Positions 50,508-64,000 of a stretch of 64,000 bases of DNA are shown here, piece by piece. A program made the translations under genes and the position numbers. Source of the stretch: Promicromonospora sp. AC04 (GTDB taxonomy: Bacteria > Actinomycetota > Actinomycetes > Actinomycetales > Cellulomonadaceae); contig NZ_QBUG01000001.1 of assembly GCF_003058225.1 (NCBI RefSeq), positions 868,001 to 932,000 of the forward strand, in the 5' to 3' direction. Under the pieces are notes generated by a model. That model was not told where the DNA came from, ran no database searches, and saw nothing but the letters and a program-made list of their open reading frames with translations. The first letter of the stretch is position 1. The number at the start of each line of letters is the position of its first letter.

Positions 50508-50768
50508 ATGGACCTCGATCCGAACGAGATGAGGCAGGTCGCCAACCGGCTCAAGCGCGCCCAGGGCCAGCTTGCCGCCGTCGTGCGGATGGTGGACGAG
50601 GGGGCGGACTGCGCCGACGTCGTCACGCAGCTCTCCGCCGTCTCCAAGGCGCTCGACCGGGCGGGCTTCGCCGTCATCGCCTCGGGCCTGAAGCAGTGCC
50701 TGGACGACGAGGAGAACGGCCCGGCCGACATGCAGAAGCTCGAGAAGCTCTTCCTGTCGCTCGCCTAG
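50508..50768 (+). CDS. CstR-like repressor (CsoR/RcnR family)
   Basis: 86 residues, all-helical. Family core VANRLKRAQGQLAAVVRMVD, then Cys35 (GADCADVV) and Cys64 (LKQC), 29 residues apart as in CstR. CsoR copper sensors place a His four residues before the second Cys; here it is Gly60, so copper sensing is unlikely and persulfide sensing by Cys35/Cys64 is favoured. The neighbouring rhodanese-fused CoA-disulfide reductase supports this. The stop TAG overlaps the stop of the convergent LysR gene (shared CTAG). Confidence 0.85.
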   Translation: MDLDPNEMRQVANRLKRAQGQLAAVVRMVDEGADCADVVTQLSAVSKALDRAGFAVIASGLKQCLDDEENGPADMQKLEKLFLSLA

Positions 50769-51715
50769 GACACGCCTCCTCGGCCCCGAGGCGACTGCGA
50801 TGCGACGGTCGCTCCGTTCGACATCGAGCGCTGTCTGAACCAGCTGCTCACGAAGTCGAGCAAGACACTCACCTTCTCTGGCGCCCCCGGACTGTAGACG
50901 GCACACAACGACCGCTCCTGGACGCAGGCGCCGCAGAACAACACCTCCAGCTCCCCCGCGGCAATCGCGTCATGCGCTGCGAGCATCGGCAGCAGCGCGA
51001 CGCCGCGACCATGCACCGCCGCCTTCTGCAGAGCGATGTAGGAGTTCGCCGAGAATGAGTTGCGCACGATCTTGTGCACGTGCTCCTGGCCGTCGATCGT
51101 CAGCCGCCACGAGGACTCCTGGTCGTGCGTCAGGCAGTCGTGCCCGGCAAGGTCGCCCATGCTCTCGGGCCGGCCTCGGCTGTCCAGGTAGTCCGGCGCG
51201 GCGCACGGCACGAACGCGAGCGACGCGATCCGGCGCAGCTGCATCCGGGAGTCACGCAACGGACGCGTGTGGAAGGAGACATCGAAGCCGCTGTCCACGA
51301 ACGAATAGGCACGGTCCTGCACTCCCCCGAGCTCAAGATGAAGCTCGACGTCGGGGTACTCCACCGCGAACGCGGCAATGGCCTCGCCCAGGTCGAGGCT
51401 GCCCAGCCACTTGGGGCAGATCACCGAGAGCGGTCCGGCGACGCTGCTGTTCATCCAGGTGAGGTTGCGGTCCTCTTCCTCGATCTCGTCGAGGATACGG
51501 CGGGCGAAGGCGCTGTAACGGACGCCATATTCCGTCAGGGTCACCGAACGCGCTGTCCGAATGACCAGCCGTGCGCCGAGCTGCTTCTCAAGACTCGCGA
51601 CGTGTCGGGACACCGAGGACGACGACGTCCTCATCAGTTCAGCTGCACTGGCGAAGCTCTCGGAGCCGGCGACGGCAACCAGGCTCCGCATGGCTACGAG
51701 TCGGTCCTCCGTCAT
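50765..51715 (-). CDS. LysR-family transcriptional regulator
   Basis: 316 residues. N-terminal winged helix (MRSLVAVAGSESFASAAELM, SSSSVSRHVASLEKQLGARL) and a LysR substrate-binding domain (GPLSVICPKWLGSLDLGEAI, VSFHTRPLRDSRMQLRRIAS). The inducer is unknown. It is divergent from a LacI gene and its stop overlaps that of the cstR-like gene. Adjacent to the O-demethylase cluster but separated from it by lacI. Confidence 0.88.
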   Translation of the reverse strand: MTEDRLVAMRSLVAVAGSESFASAAELMRTSSSSVSRHVASLEKQLGARLVIRTARSVTLTEYGVRYSAFARRILDEIEEEDRNLTWMNSSVAGPLSVICPKWLGSLDLGEAIAAFAVEYPDVELHLELGGVQDRAYSFVDSGFDVSFHTRPLRDSRMQLRRIASLAFVPCAAPDYLDSRGRPESMGDLAGHDCLTHDQESSWRLTIDGQEHVHKIVRNSFSANSYIALQKAAVHGRGVALLPMLAAHDAIAAGELEVLFCGACVQERSLCAVYSPGAPEKVSVLLDFVSSWFRQRSMSNGATVASQSPRGRGGVS

Positions 51716-51765: not shown

Positions 51766-51775
51766 ACTAGATCGT
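51766..51775 (+). promoter_or_regulatory. ACTAGATCGT motif before lacI
   Basis: The same 10 bases occur at 57803-57812 upstream of the demethylase-metF operon. At both places a -10-like hexamer (here GATACT, 51760-51765) directly precedes ACTAG, so a common repressor, possibly the LacI protein, could block both promoters. Confidence 0.45.
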
Positions 51776-51882
51776 GCAAGTAAGCCGGGAAGTATCGGCT
51801 CCCGGAACCGCCTTGACCAGGCCGGCGACGAGAGACCTGGTCGATACGATCTGGGGAGAGGACCACACACGGCGGAGGACAG

Positions 51883-52806
51883 ATGACCCGGAGCACTCGC
51901 GTCACCATGAAGGACGTCGCCAGCGCGAGTGGTGTCTCCAAGGCAACGGTCGGGTTCGTCCTCTCCGACACCCCCACCCAGACCATCTCGCCCGCCACCC
52001 GTGAACGCGTGCAGCGTGCAGCCCGAGAGCTCGGCTACGTCCCGGACGGCATCGCGCGCGCGCTTCGTGAAGGTACTTCGCGCGTCGTCGTGCTCAACGT
52101 CGACGCCAGTCTCGAGGGCAACTACTCCAGGTCCTACATCGACGGTCTCGACGACGAGCTGGCGCGCCACGAACACATCCTGCTCGTGAAGCACGGTCAT
52201 CCCACCGACGCGTCGACGGACCAGCTCCGCCACATGATCTCTCCGCGGAGCGTGATCGACTTCGCCGCGAACTACTCGACCGGGCGCGAGCTGGCGGACG
52301 GCGGTTGGACCGACGGGCTGGCCGCCCACACAGCCGTCCAGATCCGCCACCTCGCCGAGCGAGGTCATGACCGGCTGGCGATGGCGCTCCCGGAAAGTCC
52401 CACGATGTTCGCGCTGGTACGCGAGGAGTTCGCACGCCAGGCCGCCGAGCAGCTCGGCCTGAGGCCGCTCGTCCCGATCACCGTCCCGGGCCCCGAGGCA
52501 GGCGGTGCCCAGAAGGTCGGGGCGTTCCTGAGCGACAACCCGGTGACGGCGATCGCGGGCTTCAACGACGAGGTTGCGCTCCGGGTGCTCAAGTACGCCG
52601 CCGCGCTCGGTCGTCGCCTCCCTGACGATCTCGCCGTGATCGGCTATGACGCAACCGACTACGCCGCGCTCTCGACCCCGGGTCTCACGACGGTCCACAT
52701 CGACGCCGAAGCTCATGGCCGGCGCGCGGCCCGGCAGATCCTGGGAACGGACACCAGCGACCTGGTCACCGAGCCGGCCCGCGTGATCGATCGTGAGTCC
52801 GTCTGA
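51883..52806 (+). CDS. LacI-family transcriptional regulator
   Basis: 307 residues, slightly short for the family. HTH: VTMKDVASASGVSKATVGFV; hinge ERVQRAARELGYVPDGIARA; ligand domain RVVVLNVDASLEG, VTAIAGFNDEVALRVLKYAA, DLAVIGYDATDYAALSTPGL. The central ligand pocket differs enough that no sugar can be named, and non-sugar effectors are possible. It runs toward the folP-folD-purU-metF-demethylase operon and away from the LysR gene, and may bind the shared ACTAGATCGT motif. Confidence 0.88.
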   Translation: MTRSTRVTMKDVASASGVSKATVGFVLSDTPTQTISPATRERVQRAARELGYVPDGIARALREGTSRVVVLNVDASLEGNYSRSYIDGLDDELARHEHILLVKHGHPTDASTDQLRHMISPRSVIDFAANYSTGRELADGGWTDGLAAHTAVQIRHLAERGHDRLAMALPESPTMFALVREEFARQAAEQLGLRPLVPITVPGPEAGGAQKVGAFLSDNPVTAIAGFNDEVALRVLKYAAALGRRLPDDLAVIGYDATDYAALSTPGLTTVHIDAEAHGRRAARQILGTDTSDLVTEPARVIDRESV

Positions 52807-52834: not shown

Positions 52835-53707
52835 TCACGACGGGCTCTGCCATACGCCTGCCACCGTCACCGCGTCACGGCTGCTTCGAACGTCGTGGAC
52901 GCGAACACAGGCCGCTCCGGCAGCCGCAGCGAGTGTCGTGACGGCCGCGGTGAGGTGGTCCCGATCCGCGGCTGTCGGCACCGCGCCCGACGACTGCTCG
53001 GCCGCGCGTCCCAGGAAAGCCTTGCGCGAGGCGCCGACGAGCAGGGGATGGCCGAGGTCGAGGATCCGCTCCAGCCCACGGAGCAGTGCCCAGCAGTGAT
53101 CGGCGTTCTTCGCGAATCCGAGCCCCGGGTCGAGGACGATCCTGCCTGCGTCGATTCCCGCTGCGACGAGGGCGTCCACGCGCCTGAGCAGCTCTGACCG
53201 CACGTCCTCAACCACGTTGAGGTAGGACGCGCGCTCCATCATCTGGTCGCTGTGACCGCGCCAGTGCATGGCGACGTAGGTCACGTCCGACTCGGCCACG
53301 ACTCGGCCCATCTCGATGTCCGCCAATCCCCCGCTGACATCATTGACGACCGTCGCGCCCGCGCCGATCGCCGCCGCGGCGACCCTGGCACGCATCGTGT
53401 CGACACTGACCCGCACACCTGACGCCACCAGGGCCTGCACCACCGGGACGACCCGCCGTAGCTCCTCCGGCTCGGAGACACGGGACGCACCCGGGCGGGT
53501 CGACTCGCCGCCCACGTCAACGAGATCGGCACCGTTGCGCACCATGGCGAGCCCGTGCCCGACGGCGGCGTCCCGTGCCAGGTAGCGCGCGCCGTCGGAG
53601 AAGGAGTCCGGCGTGACGTTGAGGATCCCCATCACCAGGCATCGTCCGGTCGCGGTGCCCGGCACCGGGAACGGGCGAACGGCTGTCCGACCTACGCCCG
53701 GGACCAC
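52835..53707 (-). CDS. folP: Dihydropteroate synthase
   Basis: 290 residues. It joins pABA to the pterin pyrophosphate in folate synthesis. Active-site blocks are intact: MGILNVTPDSFSDGARYL, VDVGGESTRPGASRV, VVNDVSGGL, LDPGLGFAKNADHCW, LVGASRKAFLG and VRVHDVRSSRDAV. Its GTG at 53707 lies inside folD (16-base overlap), so it is translationally tied to that operon. A folP here, not in a general folate-synthesis operon, suggests dedicated THF supply for the adjacent demethylases. Confidence 0.9.
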   Translation of the reverse strand: MVPGVGRTAVRPFPVPGTATGRCLVMGILNVTPDSFSDGARYLARDAAVGHGLAMVRNGADLVDVGGESTRPGASRVSEPEELRRVVPVVQALVASGVRVSVDTMRARVAAAAIGAGATVVNDVSGGLADIEMGRVVAESDVTYVAMHWRGHSDQMMERASYLNVVEDVRSELLRRVDALVAAGIDAGRIVLDPGLGFAKNADHCWALLRGLERILDLGHPLLVGASRKAFLGRAAEQSSGAVPTAADRDHLTAAVTTLAAAAGAACVRVHDVRSSRDAVTVAGVWQSPS

Positions 53708-54540
53708 AGTGCTGCCCTCAACGTGTTCGACATCAGCATCGCGATAGTCATCGGGCCGACGCCGCCCGGGACCGGGGTGATCGCTTTGGCCAGGCCTTCA
53801 ACCTCGTGAGCCCGTACGTCACCGGTCAGACCGGTCGATGTCCGGTGGATCCCGACGTCGACGACCACCGCGCCGGGCTTGACGTGCTCAAGGCCTATGA
53901 GTCCCCTGGCGCCGGTCGCGACGACAAGGATGTCGGCCTCTCGGGTGGCGGAGATCAGGTCCCGGGTCTCCTTGTGCGCCACGGTCACCGTCGCGTCACG
54001 GTTCAGGAGCATCTGTCCCATCGGACGCCCCACGAGGTCGGACCGTCCCACGACGCAGGCCTTGGCACCCTCGATGGTGATGCCCTCGGAGTCGAGGATC
54101 TCGATCACACCTGACGGCGTGCACGGACGCAATCCCGGCCGGTCCCGTGCGAGCAGGCCGGCGCTCTCGGTCGTGAGGCCGTCGACGTCCTTCTCGGGCG
54201 GGATCCGGTTGATGAGGGGCCCGGCCTCGAGCCCTGGCGGGAGCGGCAGCTGCAGCAGGATCCCGGCTACCTGGGGATCTGCAGCCAGCCGGTCGATCAC
54301 CGTCTCCAGCTCGCGTTGGCTGACGGTGGCCGGGAGCTCGACGTGCAGGTCCCGCATCCCGGCCTGGACCACGGCGCGCCTCTTCGACGCGACATAGACG
54401 GCGCTGGCGGGATCGTCTCCGACGAGGATGGTCGCCAGTCCGGGGGCTCGCTCCGGGTCCGGCCAGCAACGGGCCGCCTCGACGGCCACCTCTGCCCGGA
54501 CCCGAGCGGCAATCGCTCGCCCGTCGATCTTGTGCGTCAT
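53692..54540 (-). CDS. folD: Methylene-THF dehydrogenase/cyclohydrolase
   Basis: 282 residues. Bifunctional: 5,10-methylene-THF to methenyl-THF (NADP) to 10-formyl-THF. Motifs: VGDDPASAVYVASKRRAVVQ (with the catalytic Tyr-x3-Lys), LLQLPLPPGLEAGPLINRIP, DVDGLTTESAGLL, VVGRSDLVGRPMGQMLLNRD, and PVPGGVGPMTIAMLMSNTL. In the operon it is the step between metF and purU. It starts 18 bases after the purU stop. Confidence 0.94.
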   Translation of the reverse strand: MTHKIDGRAIAARVRAEVAVEAARCWPDPERAPGLATILVGDDPASAVYVASKRRAVVQAGMRDLHVELPATVSQRELETVIDRLAADPQVAGILLQLPLPPGLEAGPLINRIPPEKDVDGLTTESAGLLARDRPGLRPCTPSGVIEILDSEGITIEGAKACVVGRSDLVGRPMGQMLLNRDATVTVAHKETRDLISATREADILVVATGARGLIGLEHVKPGAVVVDVGIHRTSTGLTGDVRAHEVEGLAKAITPVPGGVGPMTIAMLMSNTLRAALWSRA

Positions 54541-54558
54541 GCCTTCGCTCGCCTCCGG

Positions 54559-55464
54559 TCAGCCGAACACTATGGTGTGGTTCTCGTGGCGGATCACCCG
54601 GTCCTCGCTGTGCCAGGCGACGGCGCGGGAGAGCACCGCGCGCTCGACGTCCGCCCCTCGGCGCTGCAGGTCGGCGGCGGTGTCAGCGTGGGTGACCCGG
54701 ACCACGTCCTGCTCGATGATCGGCCCCTGGTCGAGGTCCTCGGTCACGTAGTGCGCCGTCGCCCCGATCAGCTTCACCCCGCGCTGCTTGGCCTTGGTAT
54801 ACGGTCCTGCGCCGATGAATGCGGGGAGGAAGGAGTGATGGATGTTGATGATCGGCACACCGACCTTCGAGATGAAGTCGCCCGTGAGGATCTGCATGTA
54901 ACGGGCGAGCACCACGAAGTCGACATTGCCCTCCAGGAGCCGCAGGTGCTCCGCTTCCGCCGCCGACTTGTCCGCGCCGGACGACGGCACGTGGAAGAAG
55001 GGAATCCCGAACGAGCGCACTTCCTCCGCGGTGTCGGTGTGGTTGGAGACCACCATCGCCACCGTCACAGGAAGCTCACCCCGTCGATGCCGCCACAACA
55101 GGTCGAGCAGGCAGTGGTCGGACTTCGAGGCGAAGATGGCGACCCGCTTGGGCACTGCCATGTCGCGCAGCGTGAAGTCGAGGTCGAAGCCCTTGCCGAG
55201 CACCTTGGTGAGGTCCGCGTCGACCCTGGGCAGGGCGATCGGCAGGTCGTCGAGCTGGAAGACGGTGCGCTGGAAGAACGCGCCACCCTGCGGGTCGTCG
55301 GAGTACTGGTCCAGGGAGACGATGTTCGCGCCGTGCTTTCCCAGCACTGATGTGACGGCAGCGACGATGCCGGTCCGGTCCTGACCCTTGATGATCAGCG
55401 ACGCCAGGTTCTGAGCCGCAGGGTTGCTACGAGCCTGTCGGGGTGCCTCCTGCACGAGCGTCAT
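54559..55464 (-). CDS. purU: Formyltetrahydrofolate deformylase
   Basis: 301 residues. It releases formate from 10-formyl-THF and regenerates THF. N-terminal ACT domain (ASLIIKGQDRTGIVAAVTSV); formyltransferase-fold domain with VLARYMQILTGDFI, NIHHSFLPAFIGAGPYTKAK and GATAHYVTEDLDQGPIIEQD, holding the Asn-His-Asp catalytic set. Its ATG overlaps the metF stop by four bases (ATGA). In a C1-removal route it is the exit step. Confidence 0.94.
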   Translation of the reverse strand: MTLVQEAPRQARSNPAAQNLASLIIKGQDRTGIVAAVTSVLGKHGANIVSLDQYSDDPQGGAFFQRTVFQLDDLPIALPRVDADLTKVLGKGFDLDFTLRDMAVPKRVAIFASKSDHCLLDLLWRHRRGELPVTVAMVVSNHTDTAEEVRSFGIPFFHVPSSGADKSAAEAEHLRLLEGNVDFVVLARYMQILTGDFISKVGVPIINIHHSFLPAFIGAGPYTKAKQRGVKLIGATAHYVTEDLDQGPIIEQDVVRVTHADTAADLQRRGADVERAVLSRAVAWHSEDRVIRHENHTIVFG

Positions 55465-56330
55465 CGCTGCGCCTCCTTCTGGCGGTCCGTGATCCAGCTC
55501 GAGGTCGCGCCGAGGCCGCCGAACGTGTAGAAGTGCAGCTTGACCCCGCCGTGAAGCCCCGGGTCGAGTCGTTCGGCCAGCTCGCCGATGAACTTGTCAG
55601 GGCCCGCAGTACCCACCAGGTTCGTGATCGAGAACCCATACTTCTTGGCGATCCCAGCACTGGTGCCGATCCCGAAGCGGGAGGCGTACCGCACCAGCCG
55701 CCGAATGCCGGCAGGGCCGGGGACGCCGACCCGGATGGGCAGGGTGATACCGCGCCGACGGACTTCCTCGACCCAGGCGATGACCGGATCGACGTCGAAT
55801 CCGAACTGGGTGATGATCCCACCGGCGAGTCCCTGCTCGTGCAGAGCCGCGGCCTTGTCCGTCAGTGCCGCCCAGAGCTCCGCCTCGGAGATGTCCGGGT
55901 GCCCGTCCGGGTAGCCGGCGATGGATGCGCTGCGAACGCCGTAACGTTGAAGAACCCCGGAGGCGATCACCGAGAGCGCATCACCGTAGGGGCCGTGCGG
56001 GGTGGCCGGATCGCCACCCACCGCGAAGACGTGGTCGACGGCGCCGTCCGCCTGGAGCGCGCCAAGGTACTCCTCGAGCATCGCCTCGGAGTCGAACCGA
56101 CGTGCCGAGATATGGGGAACGGGGACGAATCCCAGGTCACGCACAGTGCGGGCGGCCCGGATGCGGACGCGGAGGTCCTCGTTCTCCAGAAAGGTGACGT
56201 TGATCCTGGTGCCCTGCGGGATCGAAGTCCGTGCCTCGAGGAGGTGGGGCACGTCCTTGCCCGTCATCTCCAGGGAATGGTCGGTGAGCAGACCGCGCAC
56301 GTCGATCGACCTGGCCGTCGGGATGGACAT
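55461..56330 (-). CDS. metF: 5,10-Methylenetetrahydrofolate reductase family
   Basis: 289 residues, FAD-dependent barrel: PQGTRINVTFLENEDLRVRI, GFVPVPHISARRFDSEAMLE, DHVFAVGGDPATPHGPYGDA, GGIITQFGFDVDPVIAWVEE. MetF normally makes 5-methyl-THF; in O-demethylation clusters of Sphingobium the same family is used in the oxidative direction, from 5-methyl-THF to methylene-THF, which fits its place here just after a LigM-like gene. GGAGGT precedes the ATG at 56330. Confidence 0.9.
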   Translation of the reverse strand: MSIPTARSIDVRGLLTDHSLEMTGKDVPHLLEARTSIPQGTRINVTFLENEDLRVRIRAARTVRDLGFVPVPHISARRFDSEAMLEEYLGALQADGAVDHVFAVGGDPATPHGPYGDALSVIASGVLQRYGVRSASIAGYPDGHPDISEAELWAALTDKAAALHEQGLAGGIITQFGFDVDPVIAWVEEVRRRGITLPIRVGVPGPAGIRRLVRYASRFGIGTSAGIAKKYGFSITNLVGTAGPDKFIGELAERLDPGLHGGVKLHFYTFGGLGATSSWITDRQKEAQR

Positions 56331-56422
56331 GAGTACCTCCGGGTGTCTTGTGCCGCGAAATGGCCGCGAGTGCCCGCCACGGCGGCTCGGAGCCGCCGTG
56401 GTCGGACTCGCTCGAGGTGAGG

Positions 56423-57760
56423 TCAGGCGTCGTGTCGGTACTTGGTCCGGGCGACCTCGTCGAAGGGGCAGGGCTGCACGGAGGCGCGCAGGCGGGGGAA
56501 GCCGAGATCGGCGTCGGGCGCTGTACCCGCCCCGGGGTGCTGGCCCCACACGACTTCGACCTGGGTCCCCGGGCTCGCCACGGCTTTATCGACGAGGGTC
56601 AGGGCCAGCACGGTGCGCTCGGTGTCGAGCCAACCCGTCTGGAAGGTCATGCCAACCAGACCGGCGTCGGTCTCGACCCGGTTGCGCCAGTAGTTGTGGA
56701 CGAAGCCAGGGTCCTCGCCGAGCACACGGCGCACGTCGTCCCGGTCGAAGACGAGGGTGACCTTGGTCCGCGGAGCTTCCCGCTTCGCCACCTCGAGCGC
56801 CGGCTTCCCGATGAAGTCGTGGTTGAAGGAGATCGACCGCCCGTACCCGAGCTCGTACGGCGAGCAGTAGTAGTCCTCGATGTTCTTGGAGTAGAAGCTG
56901 CCCTGGAGCGGCTTCATCCCCTCGTAGGAGTACAGGGGGATGGAACGCCGGTAGTCCAGCAGGTCGGGGTCGGCGTAGATCGCAGGAGTGGGCGACGGGA
57001 TCCAGCCGCTGCCGAGGCTGGCGGTCGGGTAGGCCCAGGCGCCCTGGTGGAGGAGGCCGAGGGGCTCGCCCGCGTTCATCAGCGCTTCCTTGACAAGAGC
57101 GGCGTCGGCCCAGTCACCGACGAACTCGAAGCCGGGCTGACCGGCCATGCCGTGACGTAACGCGCGGAATCGACGTCCCCGCAGGCTCACCGGCGTCGAG
57201 TGGAAGAACTTCGTCTCCGGAAGCGGCCCGCCGAACGCACGCTCGATGAGGTCGGCCGCGAGCGGCCCTTGGATCTGGTAGCGGAACACCATGGGGTCGG
57301 CATCGGGCTTGCGGGCGGACGTCTCGCGGTTGCTCTCGAAGGCGACGTCGTAGCCGAGCTTCTTGGCGTGGTACATCACCCAGTTCTGGGCCGCCGGTAC
57401 GCCGCTCAGGACGTACCGCTCCTCGCTCTCCTTGAGCAGGATCCCGTCGGTGATGATGTTGCCGTCCTCGGCGACGGTCACGAACTGCTTGGCCTGGCCG
57501 ACGACGAACTTCTCATAGTTGTTCGCGCTGGTCGCCGCAAGCGCCTTGGTGGCGTCCGGCCCTTCGACCACCGTGTCCGACATGTGGTGTGACAGGTCGG
57601 CGATGGTCACCGAGTCGTACCAGGCATGCTGCTCGGTCTTCCAGCCGGCGTACTCCGGCTCTATCACCTCGGGCGTCCACGCCGGGGCATCCGGCTTCCA
57701 CAGGAGGGAGACCGCCGACCCTGCCCTCTGGATGCCGTCCTCAACACTGAGACCTGTCAT
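56423..57760 (-). CDS. THF-dependent O-demethylase, LigM-like (copy 1)
   Basis: 445 residues of the GcvT/DmdA fold. It resembles LigM, the vanillate/3-O-methylgallate demethylase that passes a methyl group to THF: EPEYAGWKTEQHAWYDSVTI, ADLSHHMSDTVVEGPDATKA, LSGVPAAQNWVMYHAKKLGY, FRALRHGMAGQPGFEFVGDW and GWIPSPTPAIY. It is too long for GcvT (about 370) and matches LigM-type length. metF, purU and folD directly downstream complete methyl oxidation. The true substrate (vanillate, syringate or another methoxy compound) is unknown. ATG at 57760 is preceded by GAGAGGA. The -10 box TACGTT and a palindromic operator lie upstream. Confidence 0.82.
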   Translation of the reverse strand: MTGLSVEDGIQRAGSAVSLLWKPDAPAWTPEVIEPEYAGWKTEQHAWYDSVTIADLSHHMSDTVVEGPDATKALAATSANNYEKFVVGQAKQFVTVAEDGNIITDGILLKESEERYVLSGVPAAQNWVMYHAKKLGYDVAFESNRETSARKPDADPMVFRYQIQGPLAADLIERAFGGPLPETKFFHSTPVSLRGRRFRALRHGMAGQPGFEFVGDWADAALVKEALMNAGEPLGLLHQGAWAYPTASLGSGWIPSPTPAIYADPDLLDYRRSIPLYSYEGMKPLQGSFYSKNIEDYYCSPYELGYGRSISFNHDFIGKPALEVAKREAPRTKVTLVFDRDDVRRVLGEDPGFVHNYWRNRVETDAGLVGMTFQTGWLDTERTVLALTLVDKAVASPGTQVEVVWGQHPGAGTAPDADLGFPRLRASVQPCPFDEVARTKYRHDA

Positions 57761-57802
57761 GGCAAAACGTCCTCTCGCTGGCGGCCACCTCTGCGTGGCC
57801 GC

Positions 57803-57818
57803 ACTAGATCGTCCTAGT
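57803..57818 (-). promoter_or_regulatory. Palindromic operator before demethylase copy 1
   Basis: ACTAG (57803-57807) and CTAGT (57814-57818) are inverted arms around 6 bases. On the minus strand a -10 box TACGTT (57819-57824) directly precedes it, so a bound repressor would cover the transcription start. Its first 10 bases recur before lacI at 51766. Confidence 0.55.
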
Positions 57819-57831
57819 AACGTAGCGGCGG

Positions 57832-57865
57832 GTGAGGGGAGGCGACAAGCGCCGCATCCCCTCAC
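57832..57865 (-). terminator. Hairpin after demethylase copy 2
   Basis: GTGAGGGG (57832-57839) pairs with CCCCTCAC (57858-57865), with GGCG/CGCC inside. It lies 44 bases past the copy-2 stop on the minus strand, separating the two demethylase transcripts. Confidence 0.6.
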
Positions 57866-57908
57866 GTCGTGCACTCATTGGTTGCGACGACGAGCGCGGC
57901 ACCTCAGG

Positions 57909-59237
57909 TCAGTCCTTGCGGTAGCCGGCGCGCGCGAACTCGTTGTACGGGCACGGCTGCACCGTCGCCCGGATCCGGGCGAACCCGAGGTCGGCGTCCG
58001 GCGCGGTGTCGCCACCCGGGTGGTTGCCCCAGACCACGGTCACCTCGGCGCCCGGCACGGCCACGTCCTGCGACACCAGAGCGAGGCTGAGCATCGTCCC
58101 GTACGGGTCGCTGAAGGCCGTGTACTCCGTGCTGCCCACCAGGTCGCCCGCAACCTCGACGCGCTGCTTCGCCAGGGTGTTCACGATTCCATGGTCCGCA
58201 CCCAGTGCCTTCTCGACATCGTTCTGGTCCATCACCAGCGTCACCTTGTGGCGGCGCTCGGCGTCCTTCAGTTCCAGCAGCGCCTCACGACCCAGGAACT
58301 CGTGGTTGAAGGAGATCGACCGGCCGTAGTCGATCTCGTACGGCGTGACGTAGTAGTCGGCGATATCGGTGGAGTAGTAGCTCCCGTTGAGCGGCTGCAT
58401 GCCGTCCGGGGTGTGCAGGGGAAGCCACGACCGGTACTCCCGCTCGGCCTCGTCGTAGATCGCCGGCGTCGGTGCCGGCACCCAGCCCCCTTCGGCCTGA
58501 GCCGTCGGGTACGCCTGCGAACCGACACGCTCGAGCCCGAACTCCTCGCCGGCCTTCAGCAGCGCTTCCCGGACGGCCAGGTGGTCGGCGTGGTCGCCGA
58601 TGAACTCGTAGCCGGGCTGGCCTGCCATGCCGTGGCGCAGCGCACGGAACGTCTTGCCCGCGAGCGTGACGTGCGAGGTATGGAAGAACTTGGTCTCCGG
58701 AAGCGGCCCCCCGAACGCCTTCTCGATCAGCTGCTGCGCGAGCGGCCCCTGGATCTGGTAGCGGAAGAACGGCGGGACATGGCTGGGGTCGCGCGAGCAG
58801 TCGGGGTCGCTGCTCAGCTCGACGTCGTACCCGCGCTGCTGGGCGTGGTAGGTGATCCAGTTCTGAGCGGTCGGGCGCCCCGTGAGGGTGTAGTCCAGCT
58901 CGCCGCGACGCAGCAGGATGCCGTCTCCCACAAGGAGGCCGCGCTCGTTGACCGCGACGAGCTGCTTGGCCTGGTCGATGGCGAAGTTCTGGTAGTTGTT
59001 CGCGCTCAGCTCGCCGAGCATGCGCGTCGCGTCGGGGCCGGTGATGAACGTGTCCCACATGTGGTACGACAGGTCCATGAGCGCGACGCCGTCCTGCCAC
59101 GCCGCCTGCTCCTTGCGCCAGCCCGAGTACTCGGGCTCCACGACCGGCGGGTTCCACGGCCGGGGGCTGTCGGTCCAGCGCAGGGCGACGGCAGAGCCCG
59201 CCCGGTCGATTCCGTCCTGGAGACTGGGTGATGCCAT
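57909..59237 (-). CDS. THF-dependent O-demethylase, LigM-like (copy 2)
   Basis: 442 residues, a paralogue of copy 1 along its whole length: EPEYSGWRKEQAAWQDGVAL, MDLSYHMWDTFITGPDATRM, LTGRPTAQNWITYHAQQRGY, FRALRHGMAGQPGYEFIGDH and GWVPAPTPAIYDEAER. Shared blocks AFGGPLPETKFFH, YQIQGPLA and YGRSISFNH show a duplication, while differences near the substrate side (for example SYHM for SHHM) suggest another substrate. It has its own promoter (TTGTTA-17-TAGCAT) overlapped by repeats next to a divergent marR, so it is controlled separately from copy 1. Confidence 0.82.
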   Translation of the reverse strand: MASPSLQDGIDRAGSAVALRWTDSPRPWNPPVVEPEYSGWRKEQAAWQDGVALMDLSYHMWDTFITGPDATRMLGELSANNYQNFAIDQAKQLVAVNERGLLVGDGILLRRGELDYTLTGRPTAQNWITYHAQQRGYDVELSSDPDCSRDPSHVPPFFRYQIQGPLAQQLIEKAFGGPLPETKFFHTSHVTLAGKTFRALRHGMAGQPGYEFIGDHADHLAVREALLKAGEEFGLERVGSQAYPTAQAEGGWVPAPTPAIYDEAEREYRSWLPLHTPDGMQPLNGSYYSTDIADYYVTPYEIDYGRSISFNHEFLGREALLELKDAERRHKVTLVMDQNDVEKALGADHGIVNTLAKQRVEVAGDLVGSTEYTAFSDPYGTMLSLALVSQDVAVPGAEVTVVWGNHPGGDTAPDADLGFARIRATVQPCPYNEFARAGYRKD

Positions 59238-59286
59238 GACGCTCGCTTCCTCTCGTTGCGCCCCCTGCCGGCGCGGATCGCCGTAG

Positions 59287-59314
59287 TTGACAGACGTATG
59301 CTAACTTGACAGAC
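59287..59314. promoter_or_regulatory. Direct repeats, candidate MarR operator
   Basis: TTGACAGAC occurs at 59287-59295 and 59306-59314, 19 bases apart. They overlap the demethylase copy 2 promoter in the 118-bp region divergent from marR; CAGACATCTG (59310-59319) also has CAGA/TCTG symmetry. Confidence 0.55.
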
Positions 59315-59326
59315 ATCTGATAACAA
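59298..59326 (-). promoter_or_regulatory. Promoter of demethylase copy 2
   Basis: On the minus strand -35 TTGTTA (59321-59326), a 17-base spacer and -10 TAGCAT (59298-59303). The start would fall near 59291, inside the first TTGACAGAC repeat, so a repressor there would block it. Confidence 0.5.
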
Positions 59327-59355
59327 CCCTTTGGCTCGACTCCTGGAGCACAACC

Positions 59356-59835
59356 TTGAACAGTGCCGCGACGGACTGGAACGACGAGTTCACCCACGTC
59401 CTCTGGCGGGCCCAGAACGCCGTGCACCGACGGGTGCAGGAGGCCCTGGACGAGCTCGGCGTCACCGCGACACAGCTCGGCCTGGCAGTTCACCTCGACC
59501 AGCTGGGACCGCTGTCCGCGGCCGATCTGTCGCGGGGCTTCCACATCGCCCCGCAGAGCGTGGGGACAGCGCTGAACAGGCTCGAGAAGCTGGGGTGGGT
59601 GCAGCGAGGCACCCACCCCGTCCACAAGCGCGTGCTGCTCTACGAGCTCACCGACACCGGCCTCAGGAGCACCGCGCGGGGTCGTCAGATCATGGCGACC
59701 GTCAACGGCGCGGTCACCTCGAGCCTCTCCGGCGCCGACGTCGAGACCCTCACCGGGCTGCTCAGCAGGGTCACCTCCGACATCGACGGCCCCGACGTCC
59801 CCGTCACACCGGCATGGCCTGTCCGTAGGGCTTGA
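59356..59835 (+). CDS. MarR-family regulator
   Basis: 159 residues. Winged helix: LGVTATQLGLAVHLDQLGPL, SAADLSRGFHIAPQSVGTAL, NRLEKLGWVQRGTHPVHKRV, then a dimerisation helix. MarR proteins commonly sense aromatic acids; the SYK-6 demethylase genes are controlled by a MarR protein (DesR), an instructive parallel. The start is TTG at 59356 with GGAG 8 bases before it. Divergent from demethylase copy 2. Confidence 0.87.
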   Translation: MNSAATDWNDEFTHVLWRAQNAVHRRVQEALDELGVTATQLGLAVHLDQLGPLSAADLSRGFHIAPQSVGTALNRLEKLGWVQRGTHPVHKRVLLYELTDTGLRSTARGRQIMATVNGAVTSSLSGADVETLTGLLSRVTSDIDGPDVPVTPAWPVRRA

Positions 59836-59837
59836 CC

Positions 59838-59860
59838 GGCCGGGCGTTACGAGCCCGGTC
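59838..59860. terminator. Short terminator between convergent genes
   Basis: GGCCGGGC (59838-59845) pairs with GCCCGGTC (59853-59860), one G-U pair, just after the marR stop and at the end of the metallo-hydrolase gene. Confidence 0.45.
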
Positions 59861-61019
59861 AGCGCACGCGGAACACCTCCAGGTCGTTGCCTACGCTCAC
59901 TCGTCCGTCGTACCCCTGCTGCGCCCATCGGTGCCACTTGCGCGGATCGAGCCGGCGCGGCTCGGCCATGTCTCCGACGTGGCTGAGGATCAGTCGCTCC
60001 ACCTCCGCACCCTGGGCGATCGATCCCACGCGCTGAACCTCCACATGGCCCTCCAGCAGGTGTTCGACGACGGCGGGCGGCCCGGACCAGCCCCTTACGT
60101 TGATCGCCTCGTGCACCAGCAGGTCGGAGCGCCTGGCCAGCCTGACCAGGTTGGAGCTGTACGTGGTGTCCCCGGAGAAGGTGACCGAACCGTGGTCGGT
60201 GTCGAAGCGGTAGGCGAAGGCGGGGAAGACCGGCCCGTGCGGTACCAGCACGGCGCTGACGCGCACGCGATCGTCCTCCATGACCACGAAGGGGTCCATC
60301 GTCGGCGCGGTGTGCTGATGGTCGGCCCCGACCTGCGGCATCTGGATCTCGTGGACGTCGGCCAGAGCCCGGGTCTCGCGGATCAGCGAGTCACGCATGA
60401 AGACGTTGGTGCTGTAGGCGAACGCTTCGCTGGACCGGTCGAAGAAGCCCACGAGCCCCGGGGTCGGGTCGTCAGGGTTGGTCGTCGGTGCCTGGCCGCC
60501 GCCGAACACCGGTGGGAGCCCGCCCGCGGGGCCCGGGCCGTACACCGGGACGGGTCCGGGTAGCGAGTCACCCTGAGCAGGTGCTTGGAAGCCGCCGAGC
60601 AGGAAGACCTGGAACAGGTCCGCGATGTGGTCCGTGTGGAGGTGAGTCACGAACGCGGCCCGCAGGTCGGCCCAGGCCAGGCCCGCCGACGTGTACTGGG
60701 TGACGGCGGCACGACCGGCGTCTACCAGGTAGGTCGCGCCGTCAACCACCACGGCCGACGAGATGCCCGCGCGGTCCGCGCTCACCGGCGGCCCGCCCTT
60801 GGTGCCCAGCAGCACCACGGAGAGACCTCGTTCGGAGGGCTGTGGACGGCGTGGCGGTGAGCTGCCGGCCGCGGCCCAGGCCGGCCGCGCGACTCCCGCG
60901 AGGCCCAAGCCGCCGGCCGCGGCCAGCAGGCTTCGTCGCGTCATGGCACGGGCCGGCCGGTTACCGGTCCCTGCGTCGTTCGACGCGGGCGACGAACAGC
61001 ACTGGTCGTCTGATTCCAT
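59859..61019 (-). CDS. Tat-exported metallo-beta-lactamase-fold hydrolase
   Basis: 386 residues. A twin-arginine signal (MTRRSLLAAAGGLGLAG, then Ala-rich with cleavage near AWAAAG) follows a 26-residue Cys/Ser-rich extension. The metal motif is VTHLHTDHIADLF, with FSGDTTYSS and LILSHVGDM. It resembles RNase Z/arylsulfatase-like hydrolases acting on esters; the substrate is unknown. ATG at 61019 is chosen because GGGAG stands 8 bases before it; ATG 61025 lies too close to that site. Last gene of the aldehyde dehydrogenase-pabA-pabB operon. Confidence 0.8.
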   Translation of the reverse strand: MESDDQCCSSPASNDAGTGNRPARAMTRRSLLAAAGGLGLAGVARPAWAAAGSSPPRRPQPSERGLSVVLLGTKGGPPVSADRAGISSAVVVDGATYLVDAGRAAVTQYTSAGLAWADLRAAFVTHLHTDHIADLFQVFLLGGFQAPAQGDSLPGPVPVYGPGPAGGLPPVFGGGQAPTTNPDDPTPGLVGFFDRSSEAFAYSTNVFMRDSLIRETRALADVHEIQMPQVGADHQHTAPTMDPFVVMEDDRVRVSAVLVPHGPVFPAFAYRFDTDHGSVTFSGDTTYSSNLVRLARRSDLLVHEAINVRGWSGPPAVVEHLLEGHVEVQRVGSIAQGAEVERLILSHVGDMAEPRRLDPRKWHRWAQQGYDGRVSVGNDLEVFRVR

Positions 61020-61033
61020 CTTCATATCTCCCG

Positions 61034-62359
61034 TCAGGAACTCGCGACATCCCAGGTGGGAAGTCGCCGGCCACGCAGCCGGTCGTCGATGGCCCGGCCA
61101 TCGCCGTCCGTCCGGTGGAGCACGTCGAGCAGCCGGGTCGCCTTCACCCGGGTCTCGGTCAGCTCGGACTCGACGTCGGAGTGCACAGTGATGCCGCCGC
61201 CCGTCCCGACGGACCAGCGGCCGGAGCCGTCGGTCACGAGGGACCGGATCACGACGCCCAGGTCGGCCTCACCGGACGCGGCGACCCGGCCGAACGCGCC
61301 CGAGTAGACCCCGCGCGGGGTGTCCTCCACCTCGTCGATCACCTGCATCGTGCGGAGCTTGGGCGCCCCCGTCATCGAGCCCGGAGGAAACAACGCACGG
61401 ATCGCGGCGACCGTCGACACGTCACCGCGCAGACGACCGCGCACCGTCGAGACCAGCTGGTGCACCGAGGCGTAGCTCTCGACCTCCATGAGGCGCGGCG
61501 TCGACACCGTCCCCGCCCGGCTGACCGTCCCGAGGTCGTTACGGATCAGGTCGACGATCATCAGGTTCTCGGCCCGGAAGCGAGGATCATCAGCCAGCTG
61601 GTCGCGCAGCCACAGGTCGTCCGAGGCGGTCGCCCCACGCGCTGTCGTGCCCTTGATCGGCCGGCTCTCGGCCCATCCGTGAGCATCGATGGTCACGAAC
61701 CGCTCCGGGCTCGAGCTCAGCACCCAGGCTCGCGCCCCGGCCACGTCGTGCTGGAGAAAACCGGCATACGGCGCTGGGTTGCGCCGACGCAGGGCGAGGT
61801 AGGTCTCGACTGCGGCGGAGTCGGCTTCGACTCCTACCCGATAGGTGAGGTTCACCTCGTAGGAGTTCCCCGCGTGCAGTTGCTCCCGCACCCTGGCGAA
61901 GGCCGTTCGGTACGCATCCTCTCGACCCGTCTCGAGCGGATGCGGAAGGACCGCTCCGGCTCCAGGAGGCTCAGCGGGCGGGTGCTCGAACCGCCTGACG
62001 TGACCCGCCCGCATCCAGACCGAGTCCGGAAGGTCGCCGCTCGGCCGCGCAGGCAGGTCAGACCGGGCGGCGTACCCGAGATAGCCGACCCACTCCACAT
62101 CGTCCGGACCGCACGCCAGCTCCTGGTCCAGCACCGTGAAGATGTCGGTGCCGACCGCTTCGACGGCGTCGCCGACATGCCGGCGCACCAGTCCGTCGGA
62201 TGCCGTGTACGACAGGGAGACGTCCTTGTCGGCCAGCCACCCGATATGGGAGGTGCGCCCCGACCAGTCCCGGCCGCCGGCTCCGTCGAGCCAGAAGCAA
62301 CGAGCGTGCGTGGCGGCAACCTCGCGAAAGTACGCGATCGCGGCCTCGTCGTCGCACAC
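61034..62359 (-). CDS. pabB: Aminodeoxychorismate synthase component I
   Basis: 441 residues. It makes 4-amino-4-deoxychorismate for pABA. Chorismate-binding motifs: AGNSYEVNLTYRVGVE, SSSPERFVTID, ESRPIKGTTARGATASD, ENLMIVDLIRNDLGTVSRAG and GSMTGAPKLRTMQVIDEVED. PIKGT favours PabB over anthranilate synthase. The start is GTG at 62359, 2 bases after the pabA stop. With folP it indicates local folate supply. Confidence 0.88.
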   Translation of the reverse strand: MCDDEAAIAYFREVAATHARCFWLDGAGGRDWSGRTSHIGWLADKDVSLSYTASDGLVRRHVGDAVEAVGTDIFTVLDQELACGPDDVEWVGYLGYAARSDLPARPSGDLPDSVWMRAGHVRRFEHPPAEPPGAGAVLPHPLETGREDAYRTAFARVREQLHAGNSYEVNLTYRVGVEADSAAVETYLALRRRNPAPYAGFLQHDVAGARAWVLSSSPERFVTIDAHGWAESRPIKGTTARGATASDDLWLRDQLADDPRFRAENLMIVDLIRNDLGTVSRAGTVSTPRLMEVESYASVHQLVSTVRGRLRGDVSTVAAIRALFPPGSMTGAPKLRTMQVIDEVEDTPRGVYSGAFGRVAASGEADLGVVIRSLVTDGSGRWSVGTGGGITVHSDVESELTETRVKATRLLDVLHRTDGDGRAIDDRLRGRRLPTWDVASS

Positions 62360-62361
62360 GG

Positions 62362-62922
62362 CTATCTCAGCCCCAGGAAGTTGGCCATCAGCCGTGCACC
62401 CTGCTCGGACAGCACCGACTCGGGATGAAACTGCACGCCCTCCAGCGCCAGGCGACGGTGCCGCACCCCCATGACGGTCCCGTCCTCGCTGCGCGCGGTG
62501 ACCGACAGGCACGACGGGACCGCGACAGCAGCCAGCGAGTGGTAGCGGACCGCCCGGAACTCGGGCGGCAGACCGCGAAACACACCGGTGCCGTCGTGCC
62601 GGATCGTGGCGACCTCCCCATGGGCCGGCCGCACCCTGCGCACCGTTCCGCCGTACGCCCTCACCAGGCCTTGCAGGCCGAGGCAGACGCCCAGCACCGG
62701 CACCTGCGCGGAGCGGAGCAGGTCGCGGCCGATGCTGAAGTCGGCCGGGTCGTCCGGGGTGCCCGGGCCGGGCGAGAGCACGACGTGAGTTCGAGCCCGC
62801 AGGTCGCTGGTCGTGGCCTCGTCGTGCTGGACGACGTCAGGAAGGGCACCCGTCACCTCGGCGACGAGGTGCGCCAGGTTCCACGTGTAGGAGTCGTGGT
62901 GGTCGATCACGAGGACGTTCAC
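62362..62922 (-). CDS. pabA: Aminodeoxychorismate synthase component II (glutamine amidotransferase)
   Basis: 186 residues. Class I amidotransferase: nucleophile Cys in GVCLGLQGLV and His-Glu in GVQFHPESVL, N terminus VLVIDHHDSYTWNLAHLV. It feeds ammonia to PabB. The GTG at 62922 lies 10 bases after the aldehyde dehydrogenase stop; pabA, pabB and the metallo-hydrolase follow as one operon. Confidence 0.9.
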   Translation of the reverse strand: MNVLVIDHHDSYTWNLAHLVAEVTGALPDVVQHDEATTSDLRARTHVVLSPGPGTPDDPADFSIGRDLLRSAQVPVLGVCLGLQGLVRAYGGTVRRVRPAHGEVATIRHDGTGVFRGLPPEFRAVRYHSLAAVAVPSCLSVTARSEDGTVMGVRHRRLALEGVQFHPESVLSEQGARLMANFLGLR

Positions 62923-62932
62923 CGGTGCTCAC

Positions 62933-64000
62933 TCATCGTGCACCCGCAAACGGGTCGGGCGTGAGCGTGTACTTCGTCTGGAGATACTCGTGGATGCCCT
63001 CCGGGCCGCCCTCGCGGCCCAGGCCGGACAGCTTCCAGCCGCCGAACGGGGCCGCGGCGTCGGAGACGACGCCAACGTTGAGGCCCATCATCCCGGTCTC
63101 GAGCCGCTCGATCATGCGCTGGCCGCGAGCCAGGTTCTCGGTGTAGACGTAGGAGACCAGCCCGTACTCCGTGTCGTTGGCAATGCGGACGGCCTCGTCC
63201 TCGTCGTCGAAGGGAAGGATCGCGAGGACCGGCCCGAAGATCTCCTCGCGCAGGATCGCGCTGCCGGGGCGCACACCGGACAGCACGGTCGCCGCGTAGA
63301 ACGAGCCCGGCCGGTCGATCGCGGCGCCCCCGACCAGCAGGGTCGCACCGTGGGCGACGGCATCGTCCACGAGCTCCGCGGTCTTGGCCACGGCGCGGTC
63401 GTCGATGAGCGGGCCGATCGTCACGCCGTCCTCGGTGCCACGGCCCGTGCGGAACGCCCGGACCCGCTCGGTGACGCGGCGGGCGAACTCCTCGGCGACG
63501 GAGCGGTGGACGATGAACCGGTTCGCGGCCGTGCAGGCCTGCCCGATGTTGCGGAACTTCGCGGCGACCGCCCCGTCGACGGCCTTGTCCAGGTCGGCGT
63601 CCTCGAACACGACGAACGGGGCGTTGCCGCCCAGCTCCATGGAGGTGCGCAGGACGCCGTCGGCGGACTGCTCCAGGAGCTTCTGGCCCACCGGCGTGGA
63701 GCCGGTGAACGACAGCTTGCGCAGGCGGGGGTCGCGCAGGATCGCCTCGGAGACCGGACCGGTGCGCGTGGTGGTGATGACGTTGACCACGCCGTCGGGC
63801 ACGCCCGCCTCCTGCAGGATCTGAGCCATCACGAGTGTCGTCAGCGGGGTGAGCGCCGCGGGCTTGAGCACGACGGTGCATCCGGCCGCAAGCGCCGGGG
63901 CGACCTTGCGGGTCGTCATGGCAAGGGGGAAGTTCCACGGGGTGATGAGGTAGCAGGGTCCGACGGGGTGGTGGGTGACGGTCATGCGGCCGGTACCCGC
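62933..64000 (-). CDS. Aldehyde dehydrogenase, succinate-semialdehyde type (partial)
   Basis: At least 355 residues; the N terminus is beyond the window end. PVGPCYLITPWNFPLAMTTR (cofactor/substrate tunnel), the general base Glu in MELGGNAP, and the nucleophile Cys in GQACTAANRF are visible. The sequence resembles NAD(P)-dependent succinate-semialdehyde dehydrogenases; in this context it could instead oxidise an aromatic aldehyde such as vanillin. First visible gene of the pabA-pabB operon. Confidence 0.82.
   Translation of the reverse strand, partial: AGTGRMTVTHHPVGPCYLITPWNFPLAMTTRKVAPALAAGCTVVLKPAALTPLTTLVMAQILQEAGVPDGVVNVITTTRTGPVSEAILRDPRLRKLSFTGSTPVGQKLLEQSADGVLRTSMELGGNAPFVVFEDADLDKAVDGAVAAKFRNIGQACTAANRFIVHRSVAEEFARRVTERVRAFRTGRGTEDGVTIGPLIDDRAVAKTAELVDDAVAHGATLLVGGAAIDRPGSFYAATVLSGVRPGSAILREEIFGPVLAILPFDDEDEAVRIANDTEYGLVSYVYTENLARGQRMIERLETGMMGLNVGVVSDAAAPFGGWKLSGLGREGGPEGIHEYLQTKYTLTPDPFAGAR

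What the first reader, a model, noticed from the sequence alone, without database searches (positions are those of the whole stretch)
52835..64000. Self-contained THF-dependent O-demethylation module in an actinobacterium
Two LigM-like demethylases, metF, purU, folD and folP share one block, with marR beside it and an opposing aldehyde dehydrogenase-pabA-pabB operon. Every step from a methoxy group to formate (methyl-THF, methylene-THF, methenyl/formyl-THF, formate) is present. Actinobacteria are usually credited with Rieske (VanAB) or P450 demethylation of vanillate, so a THF route with its own folate-making genes is unusual.
Basis: partly seen in the sequence, partly recalled or inferred. 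Interest (0 to 1): 0.85.

Follow-up and report, generated by a model that had tools for sequence, protein, structure and literature searches.

The report
Folate-dependent methoxy-removing gene block, actinobacterium
An actinobacterium carries a patchily distributed gene block that appears to move methyl groups from methoxylated compounds onto a folate carrier, turn them into formate and help make the folate itself, using a separate branch of a known enzyme family whose exact substrate is still unknown.

Summary
The block is real. Two LigM/DesA-family THF-dependent demethylases (56% identical to each other) sit on the minus strand with a module-type metF, purU, folD and folP, each an extra copy in the genome. 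A divergent marR lies upstream, then an ALDH-pabA-pabB-MBL operon on the same strand, not opposing. Curated scores, tree and predicted fold speak against GcvT, DmdA and sarcosine-type enzymes. But neither enzyme is LigM or DesA: both fall in a separate clade (11 rows, all actinobacterial in this sample, 100/100 support) that keeps the catalytic Tyr and His and changes pocket positions, so vanillate or syringate cannot be assumed. Added here: a neighbouring LacI whose predicted operator (CTAGNNCGNNYTAG) occurs once in the 6.85-Mb genome, before demethylase 2; matching sites precede demethylase genes in four other loci, and one precedes pabA in Nocardia vaccinii. Folate-making genes accompany only some related modules (2 of 5 named loci, 0 of 13 unnamed stretches, 2 of 9 plasmid records, one a Rhodococcus opacus plasmid). 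THF-dependent enzymes in Actinobacteria are already in print (BrdA, SesA; DesA-like predictions), so this is a new variant of a known kind.

The parts
50765..51715 (-). LysR-family regulator; homologs in the N. vaccinii (67%) and Actinomadura (54%) loci
   Evidence: Pfam LysR; tblastn
51767..51780 (.). operator-like site (1 mismatch) between lysR and lacI; similar sites before lysR and before lacI in N. vaccinii
   Evidence: not significant by count in the window (21 of 100 shuffles reach 4 matches)
51883..52806 (+). LacI-family regulator; relatives in 5 of 19 compared loci, this one included
   Evidence: Pfam LacI + Peripla_BP_3
52835..53707 (-). folP, dihydropteroate synthase; one of three in the genome
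   Evidence: TIGR01496 292.8 bits, cut-off 162.6; PDB 1eye
53692..54540 (-). folD, methylene-THF dehydrogenase/cyclohydrolase; one of two in the genome
54559..55464 (-). purU, formyl-THF deformylase; one of two over the cut-off in the genome
   Evidence: TIGR00655 361.6 bits, cut-off 285.95
55461..56333 (-). metF, module-type MTHFR (ORF opens at 56549; likely ATG 56333); one of two MTHFR matches in the genome
56423..57760 (-). demethylase 2 (P0003; ORF opens at 57874, likely ATG 57760), LigM/DesA superfamily, separate clade
57804..57817 (.). predicted LacI operator CTAGGACGATCTAG (minus-strand reading), 43 bp before the likely demethylase 2 ATG; only exact match in the whole genome
57909..59237 (-). 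demethylase 1 (P0002), LigM/DesA superfamily, separate clade
59287..59324 (+). two adjacent 19-bp direct repeats TTGACAGACNTNTGNTAAC in the marR/demethylase 1 intergenic region; candidate MarR operator; a 2-mismatch copy at the same place in N. vaccinii
59356..59835 (+). MarR-family regulator, divergent from demethylase 1
   Evidence: Pfam MarR_2
59859..61025 (-). MBL-fold hydrolase with a Tat-like N-terminus; last gene of the ALDH-pabAB operon, role unknown
61034..62512 (-). pabB-like chorismate-binding protein (likely start about 62359)
   Evidence: TIGR00553 307.7 bits, just under cut-off 328.4
62362..62922 (-). pabA/trpG-type glutamine amidotransferase
   Evidence: TIGR00566 162.2 bits, cut-off 121.05
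62933..64000 (-). aldehyde dehydrogenase, continues beyond the window to about 64414
   Evidence: Pfam Aldedh 544 bits; start

Best explanation
A patchily distributed catabolic module for THF-dependent demethylation of methoxylated (probably plant-derived aromatic) compounds. Demethylases 1 and 2 move the methyl group to THF, giving methyl-THF and a phenol. The module's own MetF runs in the oxidative direction to methylene-THF, FolD gives formyl-THF, and PurU hydrolyses it to formate and free THF, pulling the cycle forward. Extra folP and pabAB raise folate supply. The neighbouring LacI represses the demethylase 2-metF-purU-folD-folP operon, MarR the demethylase 1 promoter. Shown by computation: gene content, family and clade membership, conserved catalytic residues, extra gene copies, recurrence, operator conservation. 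Inferred: methyl ether as substrate, MetF direction, pathway flux, operon structure, regulator-operator pairing, folate supply as the role of folP/pabAB. Not known: the substrate.
For: Best solved relative of both demethylases is LigM (E 9.5e-93 and 3.7e-91); the demethylase 2 model (pLDDT 79.8) matches LigM at query-normalised TM 0.81-0.87 against 0.65 or less for GcvT, DMGDH, sarcosine oxidase and DmdA structures. The Tyr aligned with LigM 247 and the His aligned with 60 are kept in 11 of 11 clade rows and 32 of 32 other LigM/DesA-group rows. metF beside the demethylase means the C1 unit can enter at the methyl level, as expected for an ether and not for a methylenedioxy or oxidised N-methyl group (inference). 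Genome has 2 metF, 2 folD, 2 purU over the cut-off, 3 folP. Module-type MetF over 300 bits was found in 3 of 396 phylum genomes, all among the 13 demethylase-positive ones (Fisher p 2.8e-5, or 8.5e-4 without the own genome, uncorrected for kinship). Overlapping modules occur in four named genomes and on a R. opacus plasmid, the last with folE, folP, pabB, an FdhF-type gene, fdhD and an LigAB-like dioxygenase. Operator: one exact site in 6.85 Mb (the backwards control pattern gives 12 and 10); exact sites in 4 of 5 lacI-bearing loci and 0 of 14 others (Fisher p 0.0013, loci not independent); N. vaccinii has a 1-mismatch palindrome about 70 bp before pabA and 0 of 100 shuffles reach its total of matches. 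No VanA_C match in the genome.
Against: No substrate evidence. Both enzymes are far below the curated LigM and DesA cut-offs and their clade sits on a long stem (0.81); the residue aligned with Gln57 is Leu in 11 of 11 and that with Arg122 is Val/Ile in 8 of 11, so benzoate-type substrates are doubtful, most of all for demethylase 2; but Arg122 is not invariant outside the clade either (24 of 32). No ring-cleavage or formate dehydrogenase gene was identified inside the block; the nearest extradiol dioxygenase found (HpaD-like) is about 23 kb from demethylase 1. Ten of the 13 demethylase-positive phylum genomes lack the module-type MetF at 300 bits. folP or pabA/pabB matches appear in 2 of 5 named loci and 0 of 13 unnamed stretches, so the folate link is not general. 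pabB is just below its equivalog cut-off and the ALDH is unassigned. In the window the 1-mismatch operator count is not significant (21 of 100 shuffles) and no operator-like site precedes its own ALDH-pabAB operon.
Confidence: 0.76

Rival explanations
1. Demethylation proper, but of a non-benzoate substrate: demethylase 2 (Arg122 lost) works on a methoxyphenol, homovanillate-like acid or lignan and demethylase 1 (Arg122 kept) on a carboxylated one, so two enzymes serve two methoxy positions or two substrates in sequence. This refines the best explanation rather than excluding it.
For: Arg at the 122 position in 3 of 3 rows of the demethylase 1 branch and Val/Ile in the 8 of 8 other clade rows; an HpaD-like homoprotocatechuate dioxygenase (338.5 bits, cut-off 321.4) and FAH-type genes in the same region; FAD monooxygenase, RidA and FAH homologs beside a demethylase 1-type gene in genome G109.
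Against: The role of Arg122 in carboxylate binding is recalled, not read in a call, and Arg122 is kept in only 24 of 32 rows outside the clade. The HpaD-like gene is about 23 kb away and may belong to another pathway.
Confidence: 0.42
2. A demethylenase of the BrdA/SesA kind that opens methylenedioxy rings (berberine, sesamin) and gives methylene-THF.
For: Such enzymes are GcvT-like and occur in Actinobacteria (PMC5547118, parts 1-2 of 4 read). The third homolog at G000:C1:953442-954908 is 27-28% identical to the two and has Gln where LigM has its Tyr, so that one could be of this kind.
Against: metF would be idle if methylene-THF were the product; the two window enzymes are 39% identical to LigM, whereas BrdA is 26.7% identical to LigM and DesA by that paper.
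Confidence: 0.08
3. A biosynthetic or salvage C1/folate cluster in which the two GcvT-fold proteins supply C1 units from amino-acid or methylamine metabolism.
For: GCV_T is the only Pfam match of both proteins; folate-making genes are present.
Against: A strong gcvT match lies elsewhere (301.6 bits, C3); the genes here are extra copies; demethylase 1 has no match at E 1e-60 in the 12 other genus genomes listed or in any of the 149 other family genomes searched, which fits an accessory catabolic block; PurU discards the C1 unit.
Confidence: 0.06

Closest known systems
ligM-metF-ligH operon with MarR-type DesR, Sphingobium sp. SYK-6 (PMC6888825, passages)
   Same: THF-dependent aryl O-demethylase in one operon with metF and a formyl-THF enzyme, and a MarR-type repressor of the demethylase
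   Different: Here purU stands in place of ligH, folD and folP follow, pabAB is nearby, a LacI with its own operator is present, and the demethylases form a different clade
LigM/DesA plasmid clusters of alphaproteobacteria (e.g. Novosphingobium US6-1 pLA3, Agrobacterium pAt)
   Same: demethylase + metF + purU (US6-1 also folD, LigAB and a dihydroneopterin aldolase gene)
   Different: Their demethylases pass the LigM or DesA cut-off; the window's do not
R. opacus DSM 44186 plasmid pRop44186_a module
   Same: demethylase-metF-purU-folD with pabB, folP, folE and a Mur-ligase gene (folC-like, my reading); an actinobacterial precedent in sequence data
   Different: Both its demethylase-family genes lie outside the window clade; LigAB-like dioxygenase and FdhF/fdhD genes beside it; no lacI or marR annotated in the 44-kb stretch (that gene table is incomplete by the tool's own note)
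DesA-like aminomethyltransferases of Solirubrobacterales and Rubrobacter MAGs (PMC9296663, passages)
   Same: Actinobacterial, THF-dependent by inference, catalytic Tyr kept
   Different: Not compared directly. In the tree here the window clade lies in a weakly supported group (81/95) with rows of unnamed family f19, one of which scores 617 bits to DesA; whether f19 is Rubrobacter is not known
BrdA/SesA demethylenases of Rhodococcus, Arthrobacter, Sinomonas (PMC5547118, parts 1-2 of 4)
   Same: GcvT-like, THF-dependent, actinobacterial, act on plant compounds
   Different: Open methylenedioxy rings; about 27% identical to LigM by that paper

Membership tests
LigM/DesA superfamily of THF-dependent aryl O-demethylases | sequence closer to LigM/DesA than to GcvT, DmdA, SoxA or TMAO demethylase | tested here: met
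   397/381 and 385/369 bits against 72 or less for the others; tree with GcvT but without DmdA or SoxA rows
LigM/DesA superfamily of THF-dependent aryl O-demethylases | LigM fold | tested here: met
   demethylase 2 model, TM up to 0.87 to LigM; demethylase 1 not modelled
LigM/DesA superfamily of THF-dependent aryl O-demethylases | catalytic Tyr (LigM 247) and His 60 | tested here: met
   11 of 11 clade rows; residue numbers recalled
LigM/DesA superfamily of THF-dependent aryl O-demethylases | methyl transfer from a methoxyaromatic to THF | not testable with these tools
   needs enzyme assay
LigM equivalog (vanillate/3-O-methylgallate) | NF047885 cut-off 580 bits; LigM clade | tested here: not met
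   385 and 369 bits; outside the LigM clade
DesA equivalog (syringate) | NF047633 cut-off 800 bits; DesA clade | tested here: not met
   397 and 381 bits; outside the DesA clade
GcvT / DmdA / sarcosine-type enzymes | curated cut-off of the respective NCBIfam model | tested here: not met
   72 bits or less against cut-offs of 235 or more
demethylation-module type of MetF | closer to demethylase-linked MetF than to housekeeping MTHFR | tested here: met
   291 bits to 7xg9 against 47 or less to other solved MTHFRs. That 7xg9 comes from SYK-6 is recalled
BrdA/SesA demethylenases | grouping with BrdA/SesA | not tested
   reference sequences not at hand

The most novel reading that the evidence does not exclude
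A previously undescribed actinobacterial subfamily of THF-dependent O-demethylases, specialised on methoxylated substrates without a benzoate carboxylate, whose expression and cofactor supply (folP, and in N. vaccinii pabAB) are wired together through one dedicated LacI-type repressor, so that the cell makes more folate only when it meets the methoxy substrate.
Probability: 0.33. Interest if true: 0.72.

Novelty: new variant of a known kind. Interest (0 to 1): 0.53.

Why it matters
Aryl O-demethylation is often a bottleneck in lignin conversion (PMC6021390, abstract start in a listing). A LigM transplant into Pseudomonas KT2440 needed MetF and LigH for THF cycling plus a host mutation, and an optimised VanAB strain still outperformed it (PMC12997858, passages). 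A natural module that brings its own C1 enzymes and folate-making genes, with a repressor site that occurs once in the genome, is a candidate answer to that limit, and it would extend the enzyme family to an untested clade with different pocket residues.

Tried and rejected
Rejected: GcvT, DmdA, sarcosine/TMAO-type identity; straight LigM or DesA identity; the 'opposing' orientation. Left open: a BrdA/SesA-like role for the third homolog. Led nowhere: single-sequence fold of demethylase 2 (pLDDT 32.5); paper searches pairing O-demethylation with folate genes (no relevant title in the listings); demethylase 2 at E 1e-100 in plasmids (none); the dicamba-demethylase paper PMC9404685 (none of six terms in the text; abstract start seen in a listing). 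PMC9867520, PMC11446756 and PMC8091115 were seen as passages and add background only. The statement that this clade and its LacI operator were not found in print rests on ten searches of an open-licence library. The LigM structure paper and the 2005 LigM paper are not held, so LigM residue numbers and the roles of Gln57 and Arg122 are recalled. Organism: named by no call; family Dermatophilaceae is a guess from the kinship table.

Rows dropped: the tree left out window duplicates and the truncated Streptomyces row L015. Residue counts use 11 clade rows and 32 others, leaving out GcvT-like rows, a diverged Pseudofrankia homolog and the three third-homolog rows. Operator counts use 19 loci (398,919 bases); several come from the same genome (G316 three, G109 two, G011 two), and L056 is a 7.8-kb contig, so its lack of lacI says little. 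The genome-contig scan used exact peptide patterns and returned 5 loci, so the clade is sampled thinly.
Full report
What is there. The window is G000:C1:868001-932000 of a 6.85-Mb, 26-contig genome. On the minus strand, 5' to 3', lie demethylase 1 (59237-57909), demethylase 2 (57760-56423), metF (56333-55461), purU (55464-54559), folD (54540-53692) and folP (53707-52835). metF/purU and folD/folP overlap by a few bases, which suggests co-translation. marR (59356-59835, plus) is divergent from demethylase 1, and lacI (51883-52806, plus) stands just beyond folP. Further upstream, also on minus, are ALDH (about 64414-62933), pabA (62922-62362), pabB (ending at 61034) and an MBL-fold gene (61025-59859); an MFS transporter, a RidA-like and a FAH-like gene precede them outside the window. 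So the ALDH-pabA-pabB operon does not oppose the demethylases; the two regulators do.

Identity of the demethylases. For demethylases 1 and 2 NCBIfam gives 397 and 381 bits to DesA and 385 and 369 to LigM, against 68 and 72 for the best GcvT model and less for DmdA, TMAO demethylase and sarcosine oxidase. The best solved relatives are LigM chains; identity to LigM is 39% for both and 56% between them. A 12-row AlphaFold model of demethylase 2 (pLDDT 79.8) matches LigM chains at query-normalised TM 0.81-0.87, and GcvT, DMGDH, sarcosine oxidase and DmdA at 0.65 or less. In a 56-row tree both sit in a clade of 11, all from the same phylum (support 100/100, stem 0.81 changes per site). SYK-6 LigM and Agrobacterium proteins over the LigM cut-off form a separate clade, as do two sphingomonad proteins over the DesA cut-off. 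The clade's own neighbours are weakly resolved (81/95, with f19 rows and an R. opacus row). Within it, demethylase 1 groups with N. vaccinii and G109, and demethylase 2 with N. vaccinii, Pseudofrankia, Actinomadura and G334, so the two look like distinct orthologous types. Residues aligned with LigM Tyr247, His60, Met61, Glu215 and Trp256 are kept in 11 of 11; Gln57 is Leu in 11 of 11 (Gln in 31 of 32 others); Arg122 is Arg in the 3 rows of the demethylase 1 branch and Val or Ile in the other 8 (Arg in 24 of 32 others). Numbering and roles are recalled from the LigM structure work, which is not held; PMC9296663 (passages) supports a methyl-transferring tyrosine.

A dedicated C1 route. The genome has a second metF, folD and purU and two more folP, and five chorismate-binding genes including this pabB. 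The module MetF is a variant: 38.7 bits to the standard model but 291 bits to solved MTHFR 7xg9, with 47 or less to the other solved MTHFRs. In searches of 396 phylum genomes, MetF hits above 300 bits occur in 3, all of them among the 13 with a demethylase match at E 1e-60 or better; the next best hit is 165 bits, and 10 of the 13 lack it. Fisher p is 2.8e-5, or 8.5e-4 without the own genome, neither corrected for kinship. On plasmids this variant (47-50% identity in the 15 rows shown) appears in 64 records; in the Agrobacterium tumefaciens rows listed in both searches it lies directly beside the demethylase. metF matters for the chemistry: it is needed if the C1 unit arrives as methyl-THF, not if it arrives as methylene-THF. 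PurU, unlike the LigH of SYK-6 (PMC6888825, passages), would end the route irreversibly at formate (established enzymology, not tested).

Recurrence and folate genes. The one genome-contig scan gave 5 loci. By tblastn, N. vaccinii has three demethylases, metF-purU-folD-folP, lysR, pabA-pabB, marR and lacI within 21 kb; Pseudofrankia has metF-purU-folD, a pabB-like hit, the order demethylase-purU-folD-folP, and lacI; Demequina has three demethylase-family genes with metF, folD, purU and marR hits; Actinomadura has demethylase-metF-purU with a partial folD match, and lacI; the Streptomyces locus shows the demethylase and a FAH hit only. An R. opacus plasmid carries folE, an FdhF-type gene, folP, an LigAB-like dioxygenase, folD, purU, metF, demethylase, pabB, a Mur-ligase (folC-like, my reading) and fdhD. 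Of nine annotated plasmid records looked at, folate-making genes are annotated near the demethylase in two: this one and pLA3 of Novosphingobium US6-1 (a dihydroneopterin aldolase gene beside folD, LigAB, purU, metF and a DesA). So folate-making genes are a repeated but not a general companion, and dioxygenases beside some modules support methoxyaromatics as the substrate class.

Regulation, a new element. All five loci with a lacI relative (window, L011, L012, L014, L057) have a palindromic site before a demethylase 2-type gene: exact CTAGNNCGNNYTAG in four, one mismatch in N. vaccinii. Exact sites occur in 0 of the 14 loci without lacI (Fisher p 0.0013; some loci share a genome). In the window the exact site (57804-57817, 43 bp before the likely demethylase 2 ATG) has an expected count of 0.01 matches, and it is the only exact match in the whole genome; the control, the pattern read backwards, has 12 and 10 matches, so the motif is rare in this genome as a whole. 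With one mismatch the window gains a site between lysR and lacI, and the region gains one about 34 bp before the likely start of the third homolog. These extra sites are not significant by count (21 of 100 shuffles in the window, 69 of 200 in L007). N. vaccinii has four one-mismatch sites: before lysR, before lacI, before the demethylase 2 ortholog and, as a palindrome, about 70 bp before pabA; 0 of 100 shuffles reach its total. Two of the 14 lacI-less loci have a one-mismatch hit each. The marR/demethylase 1 gap holds two 19-bp direct repeats with a 2-mismatch copy in N. vaccinii. That LacI and MarR bind these sites is inference from position.

Distribution. Demethylase 1 at E 1e-60 matches only the own genome among 150 family genomes (12 others of the genus are listed, none with a match) and 13 of 396 in the phylum, own genome included. 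The operon stretch has 67-70% G+C against 69-73.5% in the 4-kb bins up to 52 kb, a slight difference. Both fit horizontal gain; neither proves it.

Physiology. The genome has no VanA_C match, while 4 of 14 control genomes ring; other Rieske types and P450s were not searched. It has intradiol dioxygenase matches, two of them adjacent on C8. An HpaD-type dioxygenase over its cut-off lies at window-equivalent 82005-83108 near the third homolog. Vanillate, homovanillate or other methoxy compounds are therefore all possible; the pocket changes make non-benzoates worth testing first. The third homolog (G000:C1:953442-954908) has Gln at the Tyr position and has 61% relatives in the Pseudofrankia and Actinomadura loci; its role is open.

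What is known. THF-dependent O-demethylation with metF, MarR control and C1 genes is established in SYK-6 (PMC6888825, passages). In Actinobacteria, BrdA was assayed from Rhodococcus and Arthrobacter, with SesA of Sinomonas cited (PMC5547118, parts 1-2 of 4), and DesA-like genes were predicted in Solirubrobacterales and Rubrobacter MAGs (PMC9296663, passages). What I did not find in ten searches of an open-licence library (listed in Tried and rejected) is this clade, its coupling to folate-making genes, or the LacI operator. Verdict: real, ordinary in chemistry, new as a variant.

Noticed in passing
G000:C1:953442-954908 (window-equivalent 85442-86908): Third GCV_T-family gene, 27-28% identical to the two demethylases, with Gln where LigM has its catalytic Tyr; 61% relatives sit in the Pseudofrankia and Actinomadura loci, and an operator-like site (1 mismatch) precedes it.
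   Followed up: partly
L007:6994-8301 and L056:2218-3507: DUF3500 gene recurs near demethylase loci in the own genome, G109 and (by clustering only) Demequina L013; function unknown.
   Followed up: no
window 59859-61025: MBL-fold hydrolase with a Tat-like leader ends the ALDH-pabAB operon; best solved match is 8gyg, named an arylsulfatase; residues 28-188 also match the cut edge of the N. vaccinii locus.
   Followed up: partly
L007:9746-14022 and L008:3125-5524: Two carboxylesterase-family genes, an HpaD-type dioxygenase and, some 11 kb on, a GH35 gene: looks like a plant-ester or glycoside catabolic region.
   Followed up: no
L076:12167-16514: CBASS defence genes a few kb from a LigM-metF cluster on Agrobacterium fabrum plasmid pAt2.
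   Followed up: no
   Followed up: no
L101:4407-7350: Two LigM/DesA-group genes in tandem on a haloarchaeal plasmid (Halosolutus).
   Followed up: no
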